DNA from: Chytridium lagenaria
Lineage: Eukaryota; Chytridiomycota; Chytridiomycetes; Chytridiales; Chytridiaceae
Assembly (NCBI GenBank): GCA_025449115.1
Contig: JAHLKC010000081.1
Span: 62,001-126,000, forward strand
Length of the DNA: 64,000 bases
Reading direction: 5' to 3'
Below the pieces are notes generated by a model, which saw nothing but the letters and a program-made list of their open reading frames with translations, had not been told where the DNA came from and searched no databases. The position numbers were made by a program, and so were the translations under genes. Below, piece after piece: positions 5,917 through 26,400 of this stretch (the first letter of the stretch is position 1; every line of letters begins with the position of its first letter).

Positions 5917-6681
5917 AAACCACCATTTGATTAGCCTCTACGAGTACTTTTTTTAACTCATAGAACGCTTCGAATGAGCGGTTCTCTATCGAAAAGTGCA
6001 TCTGCATTTTATCCTGCCTCGCTTTCTTCTATGTTCAAGGATTTCTCAATAAACACATTCATAATCGCTACCTTTTTAAACTTGAGTCATAATGATCCGT
6101 GAGGAAAAACGCGTGCAGAATTTATCGAGAGTCAAAACTTCAGGATAGCAGCAACGACTATAAAGAATAGTAGTAGCTTTGGCATAACATCATATTTTGC
6201 CATAATTCAACACTTTGTGCCTAAGTGCAGTTTGAATTCCGTAACGTGAACATTTACAAACTACAAACTAACGTCAGCTAATGATATAAAGCACAATGTG
6301 AATCTTTTTAAATGTTTTTATTTTTTTCGTTTCGTAAATAAAAAAGGTGAGTGGAACGAGCAAAAACAATACAATGATCAGATAACGATAAGAAGAAGAA
6401 AAAAAAGAGCGGCCGCGGTGAAGAAAGAAGAACATAAAACACAATGATAAGCAACTAATTTTTTTTTCTGGTCGGAAACATGAAGCTTTAAAAGAAGAGA
6501 GAAAGGGATGCGATGAAAAGGAAAAAAAAGAATAATAAAAATAAAATAAAAAAATAAACATGGAGAAAAAAATAAGGTGAAAAGTGCGGCGAAATGTCGA
6601 TTGTGCGAATAAGGGAGATAAATGCTAGACGTCATTAAGAAAAATAAAGAAAAGCAGGGCCGCCGTTGAGTGATTGGCGCC
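5917..6681. other. Convergent 3' flanks
   Basis: This holds the AATAAA at about 6048 for the small plus-strand ORF, then A-rich sequence downstream of the PP2C gene. Open frames here are low-complexity (Phe/Ser from A/T runs) and are not supported as genes. Confidence 0.5.
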
Positions 6682-9195
6682 TATACCAAAGCAGCCGCAG
6701 CAACCCCCTCCTTCTCCTCCCTCCTCCCTCCGGTCGGCTCCAAATACACCACAAGCGCCGTTGCATCATCATACCTAATCTGTCCCTCAAGAACACATCT
6801 CTCGCCGCCCCCCTTACAAATGACGGCAATGTGACATCCACATCGGTCTCCCTCAACACAAGCGCCTTGGCCGCACCTTCCAGTCTGTCTGTCAACACAT
6901 CGGCAGGCATGTAGGAGGAGCTAGGGAGGATGGATTCCACCGCTGATGCAATAACATCCACTGCAACATGGTTTTGGTCGTCGTGGGAGGATTGGACGCG
7001 GAGATGGTCCCAGACACCGTCGGTGGCGAGGAGGATCACGTATTCACGATCGGCGGCGAGAGAGATGAAGCGGATGTCGGGGATGGGGGAAAGGATGGAG
7101 GGCTCGATCTTAAAGAGGAGATCTCCCATGGTAGCGGTGAGGTTTAGGGTACGTTTGTGGGAGACACCAACAGCGCGAACAGCATCAGTAGGGTGTCTGT
7201 AAATCCTGGCTCCGTTGAGCTCATCATAAGGACGGTACCTCCGCTGCTCAGGCGGGCTCACAACGACATGTTTAAGCGTGCCGTTAGGGTTGATAAAGTG
7301 TCCACCCGAGCTGTGGATATCCCACACCTTCCCAGGGTGGGCCATGTTGTGATCTTCAGTGGAGAAAACAGGAATCCATCTTGACGCGGCGGGACGACCA
7401 TCCTCCTCCATGGCGTTAGTGGTTTGCTCACGGGTGACAAGCACGGCACGAGAGTCTCCAACGTTAAGGGAGACGGCGTGGTCACCGTGGACGACAACGA
7501 CAACCATAGTGCAACCATCGTCGGCGGGACGCTGGCCGTGAATAGCACCAGCATCCACCCAGCGGCGGTAGGCGGCAACCTGCATAGCGCAATACTCGGT
7601 GTCAAGAATCTTGAAAAGGCTGCCAGCCTCTTGGGTGAACTTGTGGCGGTCCTCTTCGATGCTGAAATCCCATGAGTGAGATGACATCAACTCGAGAGAG
7701 AGCGTCGCGAATCCGAGGAACGAAGAAGCGCGCAGCCTGTCATGCGTAATGTTAGAGCTAATATGTCATTTAAAGAAAGTTTGGTTGACACTCACACAAA
7801 CTCCACCGTGACCGTCAGCAAGAACAAATAGTCTGGTCGTACCAGAGAGCGACTGTACCATCGACTTGACCACATTTCCCTTGGTCTCCTCAATACCAGC
7901 AGCACCTTCAGGCATAACCCTGAAGGTAGAAGACGTAGCGCCAGACGTGGAAGAATCAGACCTCAACCTCACCCTCCTCAACTCCTCATCAGCGTCGACA
8001 GTATTAGAGTCAGCAGACGAAGCAAGGGAAACGGTAGAAGCCGTCATGGAATCCATGGACTCAGCTGCCGCAAGAGCATCCGCAGACGAAGTGAGCGTAG
8101 ACCATGATGATAAAAGATCACCAGCATCGGAGACAGCAGGGGCCAATGCACATCCTCGAGGTCGGGATGAATAGATTGTCTAGGATACCCGCTGAGAGTC
8201 GTAGGCGAGCGGTTACCTGGGGTCTGCACGACACCCAGGTTGTGCATGCGACGGTAACCCTTCTCCGAAGCGACAGACCACGTGAGGCGGTGGGAAAGAC
8301 GGAGAGGTCTCGCGGTATCCTCCACAGCGACGACGGCAGCAGCAAGAGCGACAGCGGCAGCAACAGTTTCCTTGGGCGAGAGAGCGTCGGGAGACATTGG
8401 TGAAGATGCATCTTTCTCAAGAGGGGAGATAGTTGAGACATCCAACTTCTCTCCATCCGCCTCCTCCTCGTCAGGCTCGCTCATTAAAGACTTGCCAACA
8501 ACAGGCTGGGCATCAGTCATCTCAGAATCAGCTTGAGCAGTAACATCAGGTTCAGGCACAATTAAAACAGAGAGGTTTCTGACGAGAGTCGAATTGTTTT
8601 CAAGACCGCTTCCGGCAAGTGTCTCTAAATCGTCGCGGGCATACACTCTGCCATCGGATGCAGACGAACTGGTCAAGATGTTGAAACGAGCGGTCATGGT
8701 GTTAGGGGAAAGAGGGGCAGGAGAATTTGAAAGCGGTGCAGGACCAGCGGGACGGACAATGGGGGACACGATGGTTGAGAGATCTGAGGAGGGAGCGGTG
8801 AGATGGGTGGACAAGAAGGGGTTGGACAGCCTTTTTGGTGATGGTGACGAAGCTTTCGGTGAAGGGCTGACGGTTTGAGTCTGGTGAACGGGGCTGGGAG
8901 ATGATTTAGGTGTTGTAGATGAAGCTACGGCGGGTTTCTGAGGGGTGAGGGGTATCGTGGTGTCCGAGGACAATGCCGACTTGGCGGAAGATGAAGGGCT
9001 TGACGTAGAGGGACCCATGGGGACATCAGCGGCAGGAGTTGACGATGAAGATGATGAAAGAATGATTTCTTCGGAGGCGGCAGAAACAGCCATGGCGGTA
9101 CTTCCTGAAAATGTGCTTGATCGGGTCATGTTTTGAGGAACGAGATGGTCAAGGGGCATTGTATTCACTGGAGGATGACGGGTAATAACAGACAT
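6682..9195 (-). CDS. PP2C-family Ser/Thr protein phosphatase
   Basis: Metal-dependent PPM/PP2C phosphatase. The N-terminal 350 or so residues are Ser/Pro/Ala-rich and disordered. The catalytic domain then shows, in order: LFVLADGHGG (Mg/Mn-binding Asp and Gly), DDGCTMVVVVVHG with LNVGDSRAVL, DHNMAHP, and EYVILLATDGVWDHL carrying the DGxWD metal-binding motif. An intron at 7737-7795 (GTGAGT...CAG) splits the domain just after DGHGGVC and joins it to AARFFVPRIRDAL, restoring the normal family spacing. Frame breaks occur near 8140 (before APAVSDAGD) and near 6810; after the latter the alternative frame gives the canonical PP2C ending YDDATALVVYLEP and a stop at 6682. The start at 9195 (MSVITRHPP) is the first ATG of the frame. 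It removes phosphate from Ser/Thr; the substrate is unknown. Confidence 0.9.
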
Positions 9196-10937: not shown

Positions 10938-11669
10938 ATGAGCCATCAGTGAGTGACTGACGTCCATCTTACTGCTACCGATTTAATTTCTTTTTCCTTA
11001 AAATACACATTTGACGGTGGTAATGCGGGCGAATACGCGTGTAGTGCATCCTCCCTTGGAAATTTCTTTGTTTCATACTAAAACATTGCAAACTTGTTAC
11101 TTCATGCATGCAGCACTGCAAACACACTCGCTGGAGTCTGTGCTGTTGGAGGCATCATGGGATATGTCAAAGCTAAATCCCTTCCCTCGCTTATCGCCGG
11201 ACTCACCTTTGCCAGTCTTTACGCATATTCTGGGTAAGTATCCATGAGCCTCGCATCGGTGTTGACTGTTTGACGCCGTAAATTCCCTATCCCGTTATCT
11301 GAAGAAGCTTATAAACCCTGTGCTCGTAATGTTGATCCATTCGTTCCGTCCCCACCTATCTTTTAGATACCTAATTCAATCGAATGCGGATTACGGTGTT
11401 GAACTTGCCACTGGTATATAACTTTCCTTCGTTCTATGCTTTTGGTCCCGTCTGGCGTTACTAGTTCTTCTGACACTCTTTCTCTTTCCTATCCTTTCTC
11501 GCGACCCTGATTGCTTTGCAACAAAGCCACTTCGGTCGTTCTCCTCGGCGCCATGGGCCCGAAGGCTTTACGCACCCGAAAGCCCGTCCCTCTCATTATG
11601 AGCGCCATCGGAACTCTCGGAACATCGTATTACGGTCTTAAGGTCTACCAGAACTACAACGGCGTCTGA
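10938..11669 (+). CDS. TMEM14-family small membrane protein
   Basis: Four exons assemble cleanly: 10938-10948, 11114-11233, 11367-11413 and 11527-11669, each intron with GT...AG. The spliced product is about 107 residues, starting MSHHTANTLAGVCAVGG and ending LKVYQNYNGV. It has the TMEM14/UPF0136 signature: GGIMGYVKAKSLPSLIAGL in helix 1-2, a middle helix with SVVLLGAMGPKALRTRKPVP, and a last helix with PLIMSAIGTLGTSYYG. Length and four hydrophobic segments match the family. In animals TMEM14C sits in the mitochondrial inner membrane and helps heme-precursor transport; the fungal role is less certain. No frame breaks are needed. Start choice is supported by the 11-base first exon in frame with the rest. 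Confidence 0.93.
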
Positions 11670-12433: not shown

Positions 12434-14566
12434 ATGTCTCCTTCGACCGCCGGCCGATCTGTCCCTTACAGCGGCCACCACGGTGGTGTCAACGAGAGCG
12501 TCATCGACGGTAGCATTGGGAGGAAGAACACGAGCGCGAGGTCGTCCAGACTTGAAAGGCAATATCTGCTGGCTTTATGTCTGGGAATTTTGAGAGCATG
12601 AAGAGCAATACAGTGCCGATGCCTTCGCTTTCAGATTCGTGGTTGTCCGAAGACCTCGTTGTTGCTGCGCGGAGATTGAGATTTCCAAAGAAGCTGGAGG
12701 ATATATATATATTGGAGGTGCCTAGTTTATATCCGTTTTATCCGTCTTTTTATTTAAAACCCGAAACCATGCAAAAAAGTACACGCTTAACACCATCTCA
12801 TTTTATTAATACAGAACATGGGCACTGAGGATGCCCGATACTTAGCGATGGGTCTTGCGATAACAGCCATTCTTTACATTGCTGTGGCACTATCCCGAGA
12901 AATCTCTGAGATTACAACACTTAGCACTTCAGACTCTAGTATTCACTTATATGCGTTTGGACACATCAGTCTTTGCATCATACCGGCGTCCGCCACCTTA
13001 GTGTTGTCGTTATTTCGATCATCATGGAGACAGAGATTTAAGAATGCGGGGGGCCTATGGAGGTTGCCCTTGCCCGTATGGCTTATATACCTCACGTGTG
13101 CATTCTTAGTGACAAGGTATTTTAGTATACTTGAAAAAGAGGCTTACAAAATTAGGCATGAGCTCCTTATCGAGTTTCTGGGTATAGTTTATTTCAATCA
13201 ACCCGGAGAACCCGATGAATTCTGTCAAGTTTCAACATCTTTTATATTCTTTTTGAAAATTGCCGCTATGGTGGCCATTTGCCACAGGGTAAGGGAAGTC
13301 CTTCAAAACAGGTTCTAATACGTGACGTAGTTTTATGAAGCTTTTATCATTCAGATTTTTTTTATGCTCGTTATTTTTCTTCGATCTATGATATCTCCCT
13401 GTGGATCATTTCGGGCTGCAATGTGGATTCCATCAATGATGGTGTTAGGTGGGGGAAACCGGTCCTCATCTATTTCTTCAACTCAATCCGCTATATTTAG
13501 CCATGATCCCAGAGTGACTGACAAAAGCCTTTTCTAATTTAATCAGGTATATGCATTTTGGAAATGTATCATTACGAACGCTCGAGCAGGCTCCGCTTTG
13601 TCAAGTTTAAAAAGTTGCAATATAACGTGGAGTGTATTGCTAGGGAGTCACAAAACGTTTACAAAATTCTTTCCGTCATGCTTCCAAAGGTCAGATTGAT
13701 TATTTGGCTTCTTAACTAAACTATGTTGACATGCTGATTATAGTCTATAATCAATCGCCTTGTCTCTTCCGAATTCCAATTCTCAACTGTGACGGATCGC
13801 TTTGACCCAGCCTATTGCATTTTCATTGAGTTTTTTGGAAAAGATTTGCAATCCTTCGATGTTGAGTTGGCCGCTTTCCTCGTCAACGAGACATTTAGGA
13901 CGCTAGATAGATTTTTGAGACGGTACAAAGAGTTTGAGAAAATCAAGGTACAGGAACATGGTTAAAAAAACGCCAGCTTGACGATACCTATAGACTATAT
14001 GCAGCAAAGTTATGCTGTTAGCAAAGCCCGACTTGGAGGGTACCGACATCATTCCGTCACGGATGACCAAAATGTTTCTCCAGCTGTTTGAAAAATTCTC
14101 TTCACTTACCCATAAGGAGGTGCGGTCACTTCATGCGTTTGGACAACATATGCAAGAAACGTCGGATAATGGGACGTCTTGGGAGAAGGACTGGACAACA
14201 TTAAAAAGAAGAATAAGGATTGGCGTAGACAGGGGACCAGTGGTTGCGGGAATTGTAGGCGAGGAAAAGGTTGGTAGTCTAATATTTTGTTAGAAAAAAA
14301 CATTGACCGACATTTTACGTAAAATTAGTTTTGTTATGATTTATATGGGGATACTGTAAATACTTGTAAGAGTATTTTTTCTTTGCTTCATTCATGTTCA
14401 TTTGATTTCTGTTATCCGTCTATGGCTTTTTTTTCCCTAACATTTTGCCACAATTGCTCAACCAGCTAGCCGAATGCAATGTTTTGCGAACAATAATTCG
14501 TGTCACTGTACAAAGGCAGTATATAACTGCTTGAGTGATTCTGAAAGTACGCTCTCTCATACTTAG
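12434..14566 (+). CDS. 6-TM class III cyclase homologue A (C2-like half)
   Basis: Start at 12434 (MSPSTAGRSVPYSG), one probable indel near 12590, then exons ending or starting at 12717/12815, 13288/13355, 13448/13547, 13689/13744, 13960/14010, 14269/14329 and 14365/14466, with stop at 14566. The product has about six hydrophobic segments (for example GLAITAILYIAVAL, HISLCIIPASATLVLSLF, FRAAMWIPSMMVLGICIL), then a linker SVMLPKSIINRLV and a class III catalytic fold. Substrate-side residues are intact: EKIK (adenine Lys), RIGVDRGPVVAGIVGEEK, YDLYGDTVN (adenine Asp, ribose Asn) and SSRM (transition-state Arg). Both metal aspartates are absent: the first site reads FIEFFG, the second EKIKVQEHV. 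This is the residue set of a mammalian C2 domain. Alone it should be inactive; it is probably a partner of the next gene. Confidence 0.85.
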
Positions 14567-14690
14567 CCTGTTATTCTTCTTCCATTTTCCACAAGTCTAC
14601 TCTCAATAGTTTGTCTCACCCAACATTCACCATTCAACAGAAACCTTTTGGCTTCAAGTACCCAACGCTGAAGTAAAAGGAAAGGGTAAA

Positions 14691-17600
14691 ATGGAAATCT
14701 ACCAACTTAATCTTCCAAGTCCCCGTTCCGATCTAAAAAAACCTAACGGAATCATTGAATGCGAAGTCAAGCCTAAAAAGTCGGAAAGCGCTATACCCGC
14801 CAATGACACCAGCACTAAGCGGCGTGAACGTCGTCGGCGTGCGCCTACAGAAGCTTCCGCAGTTGACATGGAGACTCTCGTAAATCTTCTCCTCCGTTCC
14901 AATACTACCCAAGCAAACACTTATCTTGCAGAAGATCATGATAGAGGAGCAGGACAACGGTCTGCAGCCGAGTTGTTACAGGAATCGAAAGCAGATACAC
15001 CCCCGCAAGAAATCACGTCTTTATTTATCAAACGACAGTTGACGCGTTTCGCTGCTGTTGCGAGGGGGGCGGGGAGGGCGGGGAGGGCGCCGGTGGTTTC
15101 AGGCAACGTTGCTGAGAGTGTGGATGAGGATGGATTGAGTGGACTTTCACCGAGCTCAAGGCGGCAACTTGCGAAAGTTCGTGATAAAAGTGTGGATCGG
15201 GTTACAGCATTTCTTGAAAGTTGTAAAAATGTCGAGGCACAGACCGCCGAGAATCTGAGGGAGTCGGTCGTCTACGGCTCAAGGAATGTGCTGCTTTCTA
15301 ATAAGACGGCAGAGGAGGATTTAGGGGTCGTAGATGACGCATACTCTCTACCTTCTTCTGATAAGGACTACAATGGAAATTCACGAATGGAAACAAACCT
15401 GAAGCAGCTACCCTCTTCGTCTATCTTACAACAACACTCAAGATTGGGAAGAAAAGTCGATCCAAACATATCGTTCCATAGTAGTGCTTCGTCTATCCCA
15501 CGTATTTCTACCGTCCCACTATAGCCTCTCGGCGTGCTCCAACCCATGGAGTCATAAAAGTGGAACCAGTCCTGGATGCCCCAAACAGACCTTCCACCGT
15601 GTCGTTCACGGACGACCTGTAACGCGTGACCCGCCATGTCATAGCAGTGCAAATAGAAACTCAGCTACCGTTTTAAGTCTCACCACCACCATGGAAGATG
15701 CCTCTCGCCGCTCTTCCAATACAACCACATTTCCGCAAGATTCAAGAATCGTCCATCACTATGCCTATAGTCGATGAGGCCGAAATCTCTAGTCCTTTGG
15801 CGCATCGCGCATCAAAGTGGCTCAGATCTTCCGTCTCCCTCAAACACTCGAAATCAACAAACTCCTCTAGAAAAATCATTCTCAAAAATGATACAGATCA
15901 ACCGTCATTTGATGGGAGCAAAGCTATTCAGGATGCTTTGTGGACGTTGTTGGGAAGGTTGACGCGGTTTCAAGATTTGTTTCGCGATGGCATACGAAAG
16001 GAAGATGTTGAGAGACTTACTAGTGAGACTATGAGGGGGATCCGGGATGAATTGAATAAGCACATAGACACGTGGCACTTACTCTATCGCGACCGACGGA
16101 TAGAGAAAGAATTCTCTAGTGTATATTTCTACGCATCAATCGTGAGGAGTTGGGGTTTCGTGTTTGGCGAATTTCTCTTTTCGGCGCTATTTTTGATGTC
16201 AATGGCGGTCCTTGTTGTCGACGTGGACAGCGATGATCGGATTAACTCAAGTAAAGTGGCTGCAATTGCAATAATAAGCGCGGCGGGGTTGCTTGTGTTT
16301 TTATTTGGGGCATTTGTTATAATGGTCGCGAAGTCTCAAAGTGTTGCGTCAATTCCTGAGAGTAGTCCCCAGCGCTCTTCATTGGCTTCGAAAGGAAGTA
16401 AAAAACTGAGCACGAAAGCTTGTCATGCCTCTATGGATCTGCGAAGAGTTTTGATGAGCGATTCTTGGCGTTTTGGTATCTTTCTTGTGCAAAGATTCGC
16501 AATATCAGTAGCCATTTTGAGATATCTATATAGTGGAACGATCAGAGACGTAAAGTTGGCAGATACGAAGGCGGGGACAGGCATTGGTTTAGCGTTTGTG
16601 TTGACTTCGAGTATATTCGAAACGCATTCTGTGTCGTTTGTAGCGAAATCTGTGGTTATCTTTGTCTTGAGCGCTATTTTGAGTTACATGGACCTTACAG
16701 AGATGAAGGAGATGGACGTGCTGGCCTTGCTGGACGCGCTTGTTGTTTTTGCTATTGGAATGCTTGTTTCGTACAGAAGGGGTTTGCTTTCAAAGACAGA
16801 TTTTCTTCTTGATCAGGTCCTCGTCCTAAACCAGATGAAAAAGGATCAAGGTATGTTTCTTTTCAAATACATGGTATTCAATAAGAGTATGTTACTAAGT
16901 AAAATAACACTTGATTAGAAATGAATTTAACAGCGGGACTGTTGAAAGCGCTTCTTCCTGCCCGCATTATTCGGCATTTGATGCGGAACGATGTGTCACG
17001 GGTGATTGTTGTTGAAAAGTTTAGCAACCTTTCCGTAATTCATTTGGACGTCAAGAACTTTACCATACTCTCGAGCGCCACCGCACCTGATACAATTATC
17101 TCTATTTTGGTGAGAAAATCAATCTCCTGTTTCCAATCTCTGTATTTTTTCTATTCGATATTCATTTACTGATCATACCAAAACAAACCAAACTGAATAG
17201 AACACGGTCTACACTGAATTCGACATCCTCTGCAGGCAGAATGAAGTCGAGAAGGTCAGATTACTTTAATTACTAGCTGCTTTTTAAATCATTTGTCCCT
17301 ATTTTTATGTTTTGCGAAGGCTAATTGCTTGTTGGCAGATCTTAACGGTTGGAGATGCTTATATTGCATCTGGGATTGACACCCACGCTGACGGATTGAC
17401 TGGAGAACGCGGCGCAATGTCTTGCTGCAGAGTGGCTCTTTTAATGCAGGCGAGCATGAATCATTTTGATTCTGCTGGATTCTTCCGTAAACTCCCCGGA
17501 GGTACCATGAAAGTCCGTATTGGAATTTACAGCGGTACTGCGTTCGGTTTTGTCACTGGTAAGAAGAGAGCCTTGAAGATTTGATTTTAAGAATTCCGAT

Positions 17601-17896
17601 GGTTGACCGATGACCATGTAGGTGGACTCACGATGTTGAAGTACGAGCTTCTTGGTGAAGCTGTGGACAATGCAGAAAAAGTTCAGGAGTTGGCATGCCC
17701 TGGAACTGTAGTGGTGTCGCTAGCGACAGTGAGGTTGCTTGAGACTGGACTCATGCAGCAGAAGCAGCAAGCATTAGGATCCTCAGCATCCATTGGAGTC
17801 AGGCGGGGTGACTTTGTGTGGACAGAGATGGAGGGTGTTGTTCTTTCAAGTGATGAAACACCTGTTTTTCTGCTCGACCATTGTGCATCTTCGTAG
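14691..17896 (+). CDS. 6-TM class III cyclase homologue B (C1-like half)
   Basis: Tandem neighbour of gene A, starting 124 bases after its stop. Exons: 14691-16850 (two frame breaks between about 15520 and 15775), 16919-17109, 17201-17254, 17339-17558, 17622-17896. A cytosolic basic/Ser-rich N-terminus of about 350 residues precedes six hydrophobic segments (for example FVFGEFLFSALFLMSMAVLV, IIFVLSAILSY-like, LLDALVVFAIGMLVS). The catalytic domain starts LLKALLPARIIRHLM and holds both metal aspartates: VIHLDVKNFT and ILTVGDAYIASG. Substrate residues are replaced: EKIL for EKIK, YELLGEAVD for YDxxGDTVN, and NAEK where xASR is expected. RIGIYSGTAFGFVTG is retained. This is the mirror image of gene A and the pattern of mammalian C1 domains. 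It probably acts in the plasma membrane as half of an adenylyl cyclase. Confidence 0.88.
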
Positions 17897-21170: not shown

Positions 21171-22773
21171 TGGACGATCCTATCCCAGCGTCGCTAAGCA
21201 GGTCCATAGCATCAGCAATTCTAAAGGAGAGACTTGAAAGAGACCATCTTATTCAGACTAGAGAATCAAACGTTGTTGATTATATCACCACCACTTGACC
21301 GTACCGAACCTATGGCAAGGCCTTTCCTCTTTGAGAACCTCTTGCCTAAGTGGAACCCTGTCACGAATTGCTTTGAGGATGTTTTGACACCAGAGGTGTC
21401 GCAACCGTCTGCGTCCCCTGTCATAGATGATCCTCTTAGGCCTTCGCCTTATAAAGATTTGGGCCGGGAGTTTCGGAATGGAGCGTCCGAGAAACAGATA
21501 GGTAGCCACCACGATTATATTCCTTCTACTCACCTTGTGTTGACATTAGATGACGATTTTCAAGTCCAGCAGGCAGGGGCTTTGCAGTCCCAATCCAACT
21601 TTCTATCCACCCTGAATTTTGGATCCGTTTCGACTTTGGATTTGCATTTATTACAGGATCCTGCAGACGCGCTTTCTCACAAAGCCCTCAAACCTCGATC
21701 GTGGTGCTTCCTTTCGTCCGCCAGGCAATGAGCTTATGAACCACCCTGCGCTTAACGGTCGTCCCTCACCAGGATCTTCTCTATCGCAAGCCTGTACACC
21801 AGAACCTTTCAATTGGAACTCCGTTTTCGAAGCTCGCACAATGCCCACCTCCATTCAATCTACATACACCCCCATAAAAGGGGCTACCGCGTTGACAACT
21901 ATTGAGTCTCCAATATTCGATGAAGCAGTCGAAGATATTGACGAAGCGTCAGCATCGAAGCCTTCCCGTTCTGTGGAGCCACTGACTTTTGCTTCGACAG
22001 AGCGAGATCTAGGTTCACCTCAACGTTTCAGTAGGACGTCATCAAACAGTGCTCAGATATCTGATAAATTTCAGCATCAGAAGGCCTTTGAATCAATTAA
22101 ACCGCTTGACGAACTGTTTAAATTGGATCTGAATACTATACAACCGCTGGCCTCCGCTTCTTTCACTCACATTGCCCACGACCTTGGCCTTAACTCCTCA
22201 AGTTTTTCTTCTTCCGCGTCATCCGACATATCCCAAGTCTCTCCCGTCATCAGTCCCGTCTCTGTCCTAGCTAAACTCAGTACGCCGCCCGTCTCAAAAC
22301 CCTCATCTCGTCGCCGTCTTCGTCCCAAACCTAAACCGGTGGACGTGACATGCGACCATCCTGGTTGTAATCGGCAATTTCCAAACCGTGACTTGCTACG
22401 AAGTCATCGTCGAATTCATTTGAGGAAGCGTGACTACCCGTGCACATGGATAGGACCTGATGGGGAAACATGTGACCGTATCATGTATCGAAAGCAAGAC
22501 CTTGAGAGACACGTCTTGACGCATTTACCGTTCAAGGTTTTTGGATGTTCAGGATGTGGGAAGTCCTTTACCCGAAGGGATGGGCTGGTTAGACATAAAA
22601 ATCGGGGAAGGTGTGCGGCGGGGAAGACGCGTGGAGATGATGGGGACGATGATGTTGATGATGGTAGTGAGAGGGTTGGGGATGACGGGGATGATGGTGA
22701 TGAAGATAAAGAGGATGGAGATGAAGATGGTGATGGTGAGAAGGAGACGTTGGGTAGTTATATGTCTGAATGA
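21171..22773 (+). CDS. Three-zinc-finger transcription factor, copy 2
   Basis: Start at 21171 (MDDPIPASLSRSIAS), with breaks near 21290 and 21690. The second is an extra T in GCGCTTTCTCAC, where the paralogue reads AAGCTGCTCACC. Shared landmarks with copy 1 include FLFENLLPKWNPVTN/ILFDSFLSDWHPLTN and DLHLLQDPAD/NLHLLKDAAD. Fingers: CDHPGCNRQFPNRDLLRSH with HRRIH; CTWIGPDGETCDRIMYRKQD with ERHVLTH (long nine-residue Cys-Cys loop); CSGCGKSFTRRDGLVRH with a terminal RGRC (CCHC type). An Asp/Glu/Gly-rich tail follows. It is probably a sequence-specific nuclear regulator; targets are unknown. Linkers between fingers are short and conserved, suggesting one DNA-binding module. Confidence 0.88.
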
Positions 22774-23455: not shown

Positions 23456-26400
23456 TCAAGTATTCCACGTTTGACTACTACCAGCCCCCGCCTCCCCTTC
23501 ACCCACCCCTTCGCGTTCCCTTGTCTCCTCTTCACTTCCCCCAAGGGCACCACCCAATCCCTCTTTATTACTCGTCTGAACTTCAAATCCGCTAACCCCT
23601 ATTTCACCCAAAGACCCACCACACTTTGTCCTCCTCACATGGCGAGATAGCCCGTCCCTCCTCGAGAACTTGACCCCACACCCAGCACAGGCAAACATCT
23701 TGAACGGCAAATGCGTTAACTCATGTCTCTCCAAATCCTGTCTTCGAAACAATACCATCGTACATCCTTCAACAGGACACGGGTATTCTCTCCGTTTTTT
23801 ATGCTGTCGCCAATGCGAACGAAGCTTTTGACGGTTAGGAAAGAGACGCGTGCATCCTTCATAGGGACATGGGACGGAGAGTTCCGTTGAGGAAGTGGCG
23901 AGGTGAGGCGTGCTGCGTCGCGATGTGAGTGGAGGAGTGTGAATGGATATGGAGGAGGCGGCGGTAGGGTCGTGACGGATGGAAGAAGAAGATGCGGCAA
24001 AAGTGACAGTGGACGCTGATGCGGCGAATGTAACATTAGAGGTGGATGAGGACGATGAGGATGTGGATGTGGACAGCATAGGATCAATAATATGCGGAAC
24101 ATTAGGGAATGACGCTGTGGAATTTGCAGAGACCAGCGACGTAGATGCAACGCGTTTGGGTTGAGGCTCAAGAGTGTGAATGGTATGCGCCCTCTTCACT
24201 GATGAACTATGGAGAATTTGGGAAGCTGACATGGACGAAGAATATGACGGGTTGAATGAAGATGACGCCGCCATCGTCTCTTGTGTGTCCGCACGATCCA
24301 GATTTCCTGTGCGCGACATCTGCTCACTGAAAGAAGGGATATAAGGCTCCTCAGATTCTGTGCGTAGAAGATTAGGGCTGGGTTCAGCAATGGATGAAGT
24401 TGTTGTTGGAGTCCCTGCTGTTGTAGAAAAATCATCTTGAGCATCAAGATCACCTCCTGTTGCTCTGTGCAGCCCAGGAAACGGCGGTGGTGGTCCCGAT
24501 CTCGACACATCTGAGAAAGAAGATGCCGGGTGATTGTATGGATCGAAGTGCCTCATGACAGGGTATGGATTTGGGTATCGAAAGAAGGGCTCCATGCTAC
24601 CTCCACCATACGGCGCTGGAGGCGCAGCTTGTGGAAGTGGTGCATCGTATTGACGAGGAAACGAATAGTTGTAAGGGCTCGTGCTGTCGTAGCCACCTTC
24701 CATGCCTGGATGGCGTCCCGGTGGAAACGGTGGCGGTAGACCCCTCCTCGCTGGCATAGGTGCGGCAGATGGCCAAGATTCCAACCTTGATCCCATTCCA
24801 TCCAAACTCCATGAATGAAACATCCGATTAAGGGCGGCGGTGGTCACATTTGGGGACATCACTTGATGAGGCTGGTGCTGATGATACTGGTGCATGTAAG
24901 GGGGGAACGGAGGAGTCCCCCCACCCGCATCACCACCACGTACTAGGTCACCAGTCGAGAACCTAGCGGAAGGGGGTGATCCCACGGCCGGAAAACCTCC
25001 TCCTCCTCCAAGGAAAGGTCCGCGAAGATCACCAGTGGACCCTCTGGACCCTCCAACATCGGAGTCTAAAGGCCCCGCCTCCCAAGACCGTTGGTAAAAC
25101 GATGGATGGTATGGGTCAGGCGCAAAGGAAACCGTCGATCTGGGGTCAGGAAGGCGAGGTCTCAAATGGGGATCTTCGTGGATGGCGCCATCACTGGCCT
25201 CGCCATGGCGACGAGGTTGACCTAATCGGGTAAAGGCTGGGTGTTGTGGAAAATAGGTTGATCCCTGAGGTGGTTGGTGACGGTAGTCCCCCATGGTGAC
25301 TGAGAGAGATCTTTGCAGCGTGGAGGCGGTGAAAGAGCTTCTGATCTTTCCGGGTTCAATCCAGGGCGGAACTGATCAGACCCTACTGGCCGAAGTTGCT
25401 CAGATCCAGTAGGAGTTGCCAGCAACCATTCGAGGAAGGAAGCCTCGTCAAGTTGGTGCGGAAGTTGTGTGAGATAAGAGTCCGGCTGCGGGGGGATAGT
25501 GGTGACTCTGCTGCTGCTGCTGTTGTTGCTGCTGAGGATGCAGATCTGGGTTTGGGCTGGGTTGAGCGGGAGGCTCTGTGATTCGGCCAACATTGACCGA
25601 GTCCGTTGCGTGACCAATAATTGAACTTGATAAAAAGCTGGCGGTTGTATTGCGTCCAATCGACGGAAAATCCTTGGGCTGGTGAGTGCTGGTGCTGGAA
25701 GCGGCGTTGGAGCGGGAGCTGAGATGAGGAGGAGGAGGAGGATGATGATGATGATGATGATGAATGATGACGATGGGACCGAAGCTGAACTGTGGTTTGG
25801 ACGGATGGCATGTGCGTCGGGCATCCAAAAACGCAGAGATGCCCGTCTGTTCAATTCCAACCCGCCAACCTATTGAAGAAGGATTGAAAGGAATGATAGA
25901 GTCGGTTCCTCGGCGAACTTCATTGAATCCGGTGCTGGTGAGACCAAAGTCTTCAGGGATGACGATTGGATTAATGGAGTGCCAGGCGAAGGTGCAGGGA
26001 ACTCCTCCAAAGATCCCACATAGGCCGGTGCGGAATGATGAAGACGACTTTCTCGTCCAGGGTGCATGCAGCTGCTCATTTATGGCGACTTCGAGCCTTT
26101 CTGTCGCGTTTGTATTTAAACCAGAGGAAGACTGCAGGGTTGAAGATGTGCTGTCGTCTAGAGCAACACGGATGGACGCAGAGCTCAATGAATAAGCCCT
26201 CCTCTCCCTTCCACCTTCCATCTCAAAACTTCCCAAACGATTCATGTGGCTAGAGTTCATGGAACTAACTCGCTCATCTGCGAGGATCCTTTGGGCTGAA
26301 GCCGTTTCGGTGTTGCTCGCACCTAACCCTTTGGTGATCTGGATTGTCGCTGTAAGTGTACCAATCGCCTCCATTTGACCATCATATCCAAGGAATGTAT

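What the first reader, a model, noticed from the sequence alone, without database searches (positions are those of the whole stretch)
12434..17896. Adenylyl cyclase apparently split into two complementary, tandem 6-TM genes
Seen: gene A has EKIK, YDLYGDTVN and SSRM (adenine Lys and Asp, ribose Asn, transition-state Arg) but FIEFFG and VQEHV where the two metal-binding Asp should be. Gene B has VIHLDVKNFT and TVGDAYIA (both metal Asp) but EKIL, YELLGEAVD and NAEK at the four substrate positions. Each carries about six hydrophobic segments before its cyclase domain. Known: in mammalian 12-TM cyclases the C1 domain supplies the two metal Asp and C2 supplies Lys, Asp, Asn and Arg, giving one active site. 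Inference: A and B are the C2-type and C1-type halves of one enzyme encoded as adjacent genes, active only as an obligate heterodimer, in a kingdom whose textbook cyclase is the unrelated-architecture Cyr1.
Basis: partly seen in the sequence, partly recalled or inferred. Interest (0 to 1): 0.88.

Follow-up and report, generated by a model that had tools for sequence, protein, structure and literature searches.

The report
Inverted twelve-pass adenylyl cyclase in chytrids
The two "tandem genes" are most likely the two halves of one chytrid-fungus enzyme predicted to make cyclic AMP, built like the animal membrane enzyme but with its two catalytic halves in the opposite order.

Summary
The complementary halves are real; the split into two genes probably is not. 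Spliced half A carries the substrate set (Lys, Asp, Asn, Arg), half B both metal Asp. One cited motif, VQEHV, is intron: the residue at the second metal position is Ser, as in animal AC5/AC8 C2. Of 10 A domains tabulated, 10 keep Lys and Asp and none has the second metal Asp; of 12 B domains, 12 keep both metal Asp and none has the Lys or Asn. Five other chytrid proteins and one from Opistho-1 carry both halves in one chain, A then B. At the seven loci found in this genome A precedes B on the same strand; in two, one open frame crosses the linker. A and B co-diverge (r = 0.87). Best reading: one single-chain pseudo-heterodimeric adenylyl cyclase, C2-type half first, inverted relative to animals. 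That order is published for an alveolate guanylate cyclase (PMC6592433); ten paper searches gave no description in fungi. How the window's frame crosses 15502-15697, and where the gene starts, are unsettled.

The parts
12619..13560 (+). Half A: N-terminal segment and first hydrophobic block, about six helices at 12839-12895, 12956-13012, 13076-13132, 13229-13285, 13340-13396, 13406-13560 (the last across an intron). The true start of the gene is not settled (12434, 12577, 12598 or 12619).
   Evidence: Spliced alignment to P0121/P0122 begins at 12619; hydropathy; coordinates. The segment with helix 3 is skipped as intron in the P0121-based path and partly in the P0122-based path.
13789..14708 (+). 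Half A: C2-type cyclase domain. FIEFFG 13822-13839, EKIKTICS 13936-14005 (across an intron), YDLYGDTVN 14335-14361, TSSRM 14362-14476 (across an intron), VKGKGKMEIYQL 14673-14708.
   Evidence: PF00211 94.3 bits; site table; coordinates.
14709..15898 (+). Linker between the halves. The reading frame of half A meets a stop at 15522-15524; the frame of half B opens at 15677.
   Evidence: ORF list. Two homology paths cross it with introns 15502-15677 or 15513-15697, but 34 one-intron and 418 two-intron crossings are possible, so the crossing alone proves nothing. Composition of 15525-15697 is exon-like.
16052..16768 (+). Half B: pre-membrane segment (16052-16114) and second hydrophobic block (16160-16768).
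   Evidence: Alignment to P0121/P0122; hydropathy finds 5 segments.
17005..17740 (+). Half B: C1-type cyclase domain. IHLDVKNF 17038-17061, EKILTVGDAY 17249-17362 (across an intron), YELLGEAVD 17642-17668, NAEK 17669-17680. The stop codon ends at 17896.
   Evidence: PF00211 94.5 bits; site table; coordinates.
13948..13993 (+).
   Evidence: 46 nt, GT-AG; both homology paths remove it.

Best explanation
One gene encodes one membrane class III adenylyl cyclase: a block of about six helices, a C2-type domain (A), a long linker, a second helix block and a C1-type domain (B). The two domains pair head-to-tail within the chain. B supplies the two metal-binding Asp; A supplies the adenine-reading Lys and Asp and the catalytic Asn and Arg, so one ATP site is active. 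The mirror site (Glu/Ser of A with Leu/Glu/Asp/Lys of B) is degenerate, at the place where animal enzymes bind forskolin. Shown: sequence anatomy, conservation of the complementary residues, fixed order of the halves, co-divergence. Inferred: pairing within the chain, ATP as substrate, cAMP formation, twelve helices, any regulation.
For: Site table: A (10 rows) Lys 10, base Asp 10, Asn 9 (1 unreadable), Arg 9 (1 exon missing), second metal Asp 0; B (12 rows) metal Asp 12 and 12, Lys 0, Asn 0, base Asp 1, Arg 2. One-chain relatives P0121, P0122, P0126, P0127, P0128 and P0132, all A then B. Same order and strand at the 7 loci found in this genome. Linker crossed by open frames of 291 and 292 codons in C8-2 and C8-3, chance about 1e-6 for the linker part under a simple base-frequency model. 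A/B distance correlation 0.869, 1 of 20000 permutations as high. A and B each one clade, Opistho-1 domains joining A (97/84) and B (98/90). B's nearest solved relatives include AC8 and soluble GC alpha; A's include AC5 C2 and a soluble GC beta.
Against: In the window no single frame joins A to B, and no intron border there is backed by homology. The five chytrid proteins are probably automatic gene models; P0122 is merged with the TMEM14 neighbour. C8-1, C8-3 and C59 need 3, 8 and 6 frameshifts over both halves, and the C39 and C9 fused models covered half B only. The frameshift-free C8-2 model puts an intron at L030 3130-3204 where helix 1 of half B seems to read in another frame. Hydropathy finds 6+5 helices in the window, 5+3 in P0126 and 5+5 in P0132. 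Partial A domain of C9, left out of the table, has Glu at the base-Asp place. No pocket model, RNA or activity.
Confidence: 0.78

Rival explanations
1. One reading: two separate adjacent genes whose 6-TM proteins form an obligate heterodimer. Given the one-chain relatives, this would mean that the fused gene was split in the linker in this species.
For: Frame A ends in a stop at 15522-15524 and frame B has its own ATG at 15698. Obligate two-gene cyclase heterodimers with one active site exist in chytrids (NeoR/RGC1; PMC12264004, passages).
Against: Orthologs with 97% and 96% coverage carry both halves in one chain; open frames cross the linker in C8-2 and C8-3; only 173 bases lie between stop and ATG, with exon-like composition (GC 0.54, T 0.20, against GC 0.36, T 0.35 in introns).
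Confidence: 0.12
2. A two-domain membrane protein without cyclase activity, kept as a receptor or regulatory partner of another cyclase.
For: Both domains are diverged: 22% identity between A and B in the window. No activity has been shown.
Against: The residues of one composite site are kept while those of the mirror site vary, over 10 A and 12 B domains.
Confidence: 0.06
3. A decaying copy: the window gene is a recent pseudogene of the fused family, broken in the linker.
For: Frame interruption in the linker; frameshifts in several paralog models of this genome, which may equally be assembly errors.
Against: Apart from the linker, both homology paths run through 12619-17893 without stop or frameshift; active-site residues are intact; 70% and 77% identity to the Dinochytrium A and B domains.
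Confidence: 0.04

Closest known systems
Animal 12-TM membrane adenylyl cyclases (for example AC5, AC8)
   Same: Two helix blocks each followed by a class III domain; one composite active site; adenine-type Lys and Asp; Ser at the second metal position of the C2-type half.
   Different: Order of the halves is reversed; Pfam PF16214 and PF06327, listed for many animal hits, were not found in the window halves or the six relatives.
Alveolate P4-ATPase guanylate cyclases (TgATPaseP-GC; PMC6592433, passages)
   Same: Two six-helix blocks with two cyclase domains, order inverted: the first supplies nucleotide and transition-state residues, the second the two metal Asp.
   Different: Guanylate type, and fused to a P-type ATPase that the chytrid proteins lack.
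Dictyostelium GCA (PMC1435932, passages)
   Same: 12 helices and two cyclase domains in one chain.
   Different: Guanylyl cyclase of an amoebozoan; its domain order was not checked here.
Chytrid rhodopsin guanylyl cyclases NeoR/RGC1 (PMC12264004, passages)
   Same: Chytrid membrane cyclase pair with one active site; one subunit lacks the catalytic Asn/Arg.
   Different: Two genes, rhodopsin membrane part, GTP as substrate.
Fungal LRR adenylate cyclase, Cyr1 type (PMC2939053, passages)
   Same: Class III adenylyl cyclase of fungi.
   Different: LRR protein without membrane helices. The paper reports that the chytrid B. dendrobatidis lacks it and has six other PF00211 proteins that group with animal and amoebozoan ones.

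Membership tests
Class III nucleotide cyclases | PF00211 domain in both halves | tested here: met
   94.3 and 94.5 bits against a cut-off of 21.9.
Class III nucleotide cyclases | A full set of two metal Asp, base pair, Asn and Arg | tested here: met
   Complete only when A and B are taken together.
Class III nucleotide cyclases | Makes cAMP from ATP | not testable with these tools
   No assay; Lys/Asp type is inference.
Animal-type 12-TM membrane adenylyl cyclases | Two six-helix blocks, each followed by a cyclase domain | tested here: inconclusive
   Architecture is present; hydropathy counts 6+5 in the window, 5+3 in P0126, 5+5 in P0132.
Animal-type 12-TM membrane adenylyl cyclases | Metal half (C1) first, substrate half (C2) second | tested here: not met
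   Order is substrate half then metal half in the window and in six relatives.
Animal-type 12-TM membrane adenylyl cyclases | Pfam PF16214 / PF06327 | tested here: not met
   Not found in six relatives at E 0.01 nor in the window halves at E 0.1.
Animal-type 12-TM membrane adenylyl cyclases | A grouping with C2 and B with C1 | tested here: inconclusive
   Neither shown nor rejected: A+C2 unstarred in the first tree, B+C1 p 0.302; with Opistho-1 p 0.311 and 0.216.
Alveolate P4-ATPase guanylate cyclases | P-type ATPase domain | tested here: not met
   Only PF00211 (plus TMEM14 in P0122) in six relatives.
Alveolate P4-ATPase guanylate cyclases | Inverted order of the halves | tested here: met
   order in Toxoplasma from PMC6592433.
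Cyr1-type fungal adenylyl cyclase | LRR domain, no membrane helices | tested here: not met
   No LRR family; helix blocks present.
Two-gene cyclase heterodimers (NeoR/RGC type) | Halves encoded as separate genes | tested here: inconclusive
   Against: one-chain relatives and paralogs. The frame break in the window leaves it open.

The most novel reading that the evidence does not exclude
An inverted lineage of 12-TM adenylyl cyclases, substrate half first, already existed in the common ancestor of fungi and animals. It survives, duplicated, in chytrids and in at least one unicellular relative of animals, while animals use the metal-half-first order; the single-active-site membrane cyclase was thus made, or rearranged, more than once.
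Probability: 0.33. Interest if true: 0.7.

Novelty: new variant of a known kind. Interest (0 to 1): 0.52.

Why it matters
Fungal cAMP signalling is taught through Cyr1. A chytrid family with the animal layout but reversed halves would give flagellated fungi an animal-like membrane cAMP generator, and offers a natural comparison for whether the order of the halves, and which half degenerates, matters for control through the membrane block, whose function is still debated. The finding as first stated, a split enzyme, would have been more surprising than what the evidence supports.

Tried and rejected
Two-gene reading: weakened by relatives and paralogs. VQEHV as a motif: rejected, intron. A second frame after YDLYGDTVN that also looks cyclase-like: rejected because P0122 continues TASRMQSYGGGNTCHCTRAVYDGL, which matches the frame used. 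My first border of exon 4 (13355) was wrong; orthologs place it at 13331, so the half-A models typed for lack eight residues. My first exon (12434-12578) and its intron have no homology support. A stop-free splice path through the linker as evidence for one gene: given little weight, since one search lists 34 one-intron and 418 two-intron crossings. Common origin of A with animal C2, B with C1, A with C1, or A with B: none rejected; B with soluble GC alpha rejected at p 0.031. PF08509 (Cyr1 G-alpha domain) gave nothing here nor in the control genomes, so it says nothing. Pocket model of P0126: not obtained.

Rows dropped or edited: C39_A and C9_A are not in the 10-row A table. C39_A was mis-modelled in the middle; its readable parts show Lys, Asp, Asn, Arg and Asp at the first metal place. 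C9_A is 74 residues, with Glu (YEVYGD) at the base Asp, Asn and Arg kept. C39_A, with its bad stretch cut, was in the trees and left out. A long insertion of P0126_B was cut. P0129 (2406 aa, many unrelated domains listed) was not read. P0121 lacks the Arg exon, P0126 the end of domain A, P0128 the first helix block, P0132 the end of domain B.
Full report
What is there. The window is G000:C81:62001-126000, from a 41.9-Mb genome in 356 contigs; its best named relatives are chytrids. Two class III cyclase halves follow each other on the + strand. I spliced them by eye and then with a small spliced-alignment program against two chytrid proteins. The model has 14 introns. Twelve occur in at least one of the two homology paths; the first one (12579-12634) lies outside the homology, and the linker intron differs between the paths. 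Apart from the linker intron they are 42-100 nt long. Both homology paths also propose to skip part of 13076-13208, absent from the ortholog models; I kept it because it is open and hydrophobic. The start of the gene is not settled: homology begins at 12619.

The motifs. I aligned the domains with animal AC5 and AC8 and read six classical positions (the residue numbers of mammalian enzymes are recalled). Window A reads Glu, Ser, Lys, Asp, Asn, Arg for metal 1, metal 2, base Lys, base Asp, Asn, Arg. Window B reads Asp, Asp, Leu, Glu, Asp, Lys. Over 10 A domains: Lys 10, base Asp 10, Asn 9 (1 unreadable), Arg 9 (1 exon missing in P0121), metal-2 Asp 0 (Ser 9, Thr 1), metal-1 Asp 7 (Glu 3). Over 12 B domains: metal Asp 12 at both places, Lys 0 (Leu 9, Ile 2, Thr 1), base Asp 1 (Glu 11), Asn 0, Arg 2 (Lys 7). 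Complementarity holds; loss of the first metal Asp in A is not general.

One gene or two. The concatenated window protein found two chytrid proteins covering 97% and 96% of it: P0121 (Dinochytrium kinnereticum, 1360 aa, 42% identity) and P0122 (Phlyctochytrium planicorne, 1393 aa, 40%). A profile search (419 hits, best 120 listed) added P0126 (Phlyctochytrium bullatum), P0127 (Irineochytrium annulatum), P0128 (Chytridiales sp. JEL 0842) and P0132 of the EukProt entry Opistho-1. All six carry both domains in the order A, B. Automatic gene models can merge neighbours, and P0122 does include the TMEM14 gene that lies just upstream in the window, so I also looked at DNA. At the seven loci found in this genome (window, three on C8, one each on C39, C59, C9) A lies upstream of B on the same strand (the searches score only the best candidates). 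In C8-2 and C8-3 open frames of 291 and 292 codons run from the end of domain A through the linker to the pre-membrane helix of B; the chance of the linker part being open is about 1e-6 under a base-frequency model, judged after the fact. C8-2 gives a model over both domains without stop or frameshift, but one of its introns may hide a frame break before helix 1 of B. C8-1, C8-3 and C59 need 3, 8 and 6 frameshifts; the C39 and C9 fused models covered only half B. In the window stop-free splice paths exist, but so many are possible that this alone shows nothing; the stretch 15525-15697 has exon-like composition. One gene remains most likely; the passage through 15502-15697 is open.

Kinship. 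In a tree of 51 domains A (10 rows) and B (12 rows) are each one clade (100/99 and 99/89), and the two Opistho-1 domains join A (97/84) and B (98/90) respectively. A and B distances of ten proteins correlate at 0.869, reached by 1 of 20000 permutations: the halves have travelled together. Whether A shares origin with animal C2 and B with C1, or A with B, is not resolved.

How it most likely works. By analogy with animal enzymes, the domains pair head-to-tail; B holds two metal ions, A reads adenine and stabilises the transition state, one ATP site is active and the mirror site is degenerate. Lys with Asp is the ATP-type pair: a fungal GC was turned into an AC by changing its Glu and Cys to Lys and Asp (cited in PMC12264004). 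Of eight other cyclase domains of this genome in the table, seven have Glu at the Lys place (one unreadable), with Cys (6) or Ser (2) at the Asp place; C44 and C14, read apart, are of another, bacterial-like sort. Structure prediction could not be run, so the shared pocket is inferred.

What is known. The inverted order is published for the Toxoplasma P4-ATPase guanylate cyclase (PMC6592433, passages). A 12-helix two-domain guanylyl cyclase is known in Dictyostelium (PMC1435932, passages). NeoR/RGC1 are two-gene chytrid heterodimers with one active site (PMC12264004, passages). A 2010 survey found that B. dendrobatidis lacks the LRR cyclase and has six PF00211 proteins grouping with animal and amoebozoan ones (PMC2939053, passages). 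A 2022 review of eukaryotic membrane ACs has no hit for fungi, chytrid or inverted (PMC9552081, term search). PMC8778642, PMC12414865, PMC9433096 and PMC12716839, seen as passages or term counts, do not describe such an enzyme in them. Ten searches, seen as listings, turned up no title or abstract on an inverted 12-TM adenylyl cyclase in fungi; the library lacks most subscription journals.

Verdict. Real and conserved, but not a split enzyme: an inverted single-chain one, a new variant of a known kind. Cautions: no RNA, no activity, shallow sampling, helix counts short of twelve by hydropathy, possible prey contamination in Opistho-1 (that it is a transcriptome of a unicellular relative of animals is recalled), and frame breaks in several paralogs.

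Noticed in passing
11157-11669 (+): TMEM14-family gene (PF03647 in P0122) directly upstream of the cyclase; in Phlyctochytrium planicorne the same gene is merged into the cyclase model P0122, which points to conserved gene order.
   Followed up: partly
G000: C246:3791-4608, C82:9809-10339, C20:321198-321443 (all -): Microbial-rhodopsin matches (PF01036) directly beside cyclase matches: probable rhodopsin-guanylyl cyclases; the C82 domain has Glu and Cys at the base positions.
   Followed up: partly
L038 (G000:C19:5000-14999) and L039 (G000:C19:102500-112499): Two arrays of GC-type cyclase domains about 90 kb apart: one set keeps the metal Asp but lacks Asn/Arg, the other keeps all; possibly another two-part cyclase.
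   Followed up: no
L025, L030, L031 (G000:C8:407500-424500): Three tandem copies of the A-B gene, some with frame interruptions that may be assembly errors or decay.
   Followed up: partly
P0123 (1069 aa) and P0227 (1949 aa, with P-type ATPase families): Two-domain cyclases from unnamed sources with the same inverted order but guanylyl-type residues (Glu at the Lys place of the first domain).
   Followed up: no
6635-7765 (-), 21616-22773 (+), 23456-25375 (-): Neighbouring reading frames with a PP2C phosphatase and two C2H2 zinc-finger matches.
   Followed up: no
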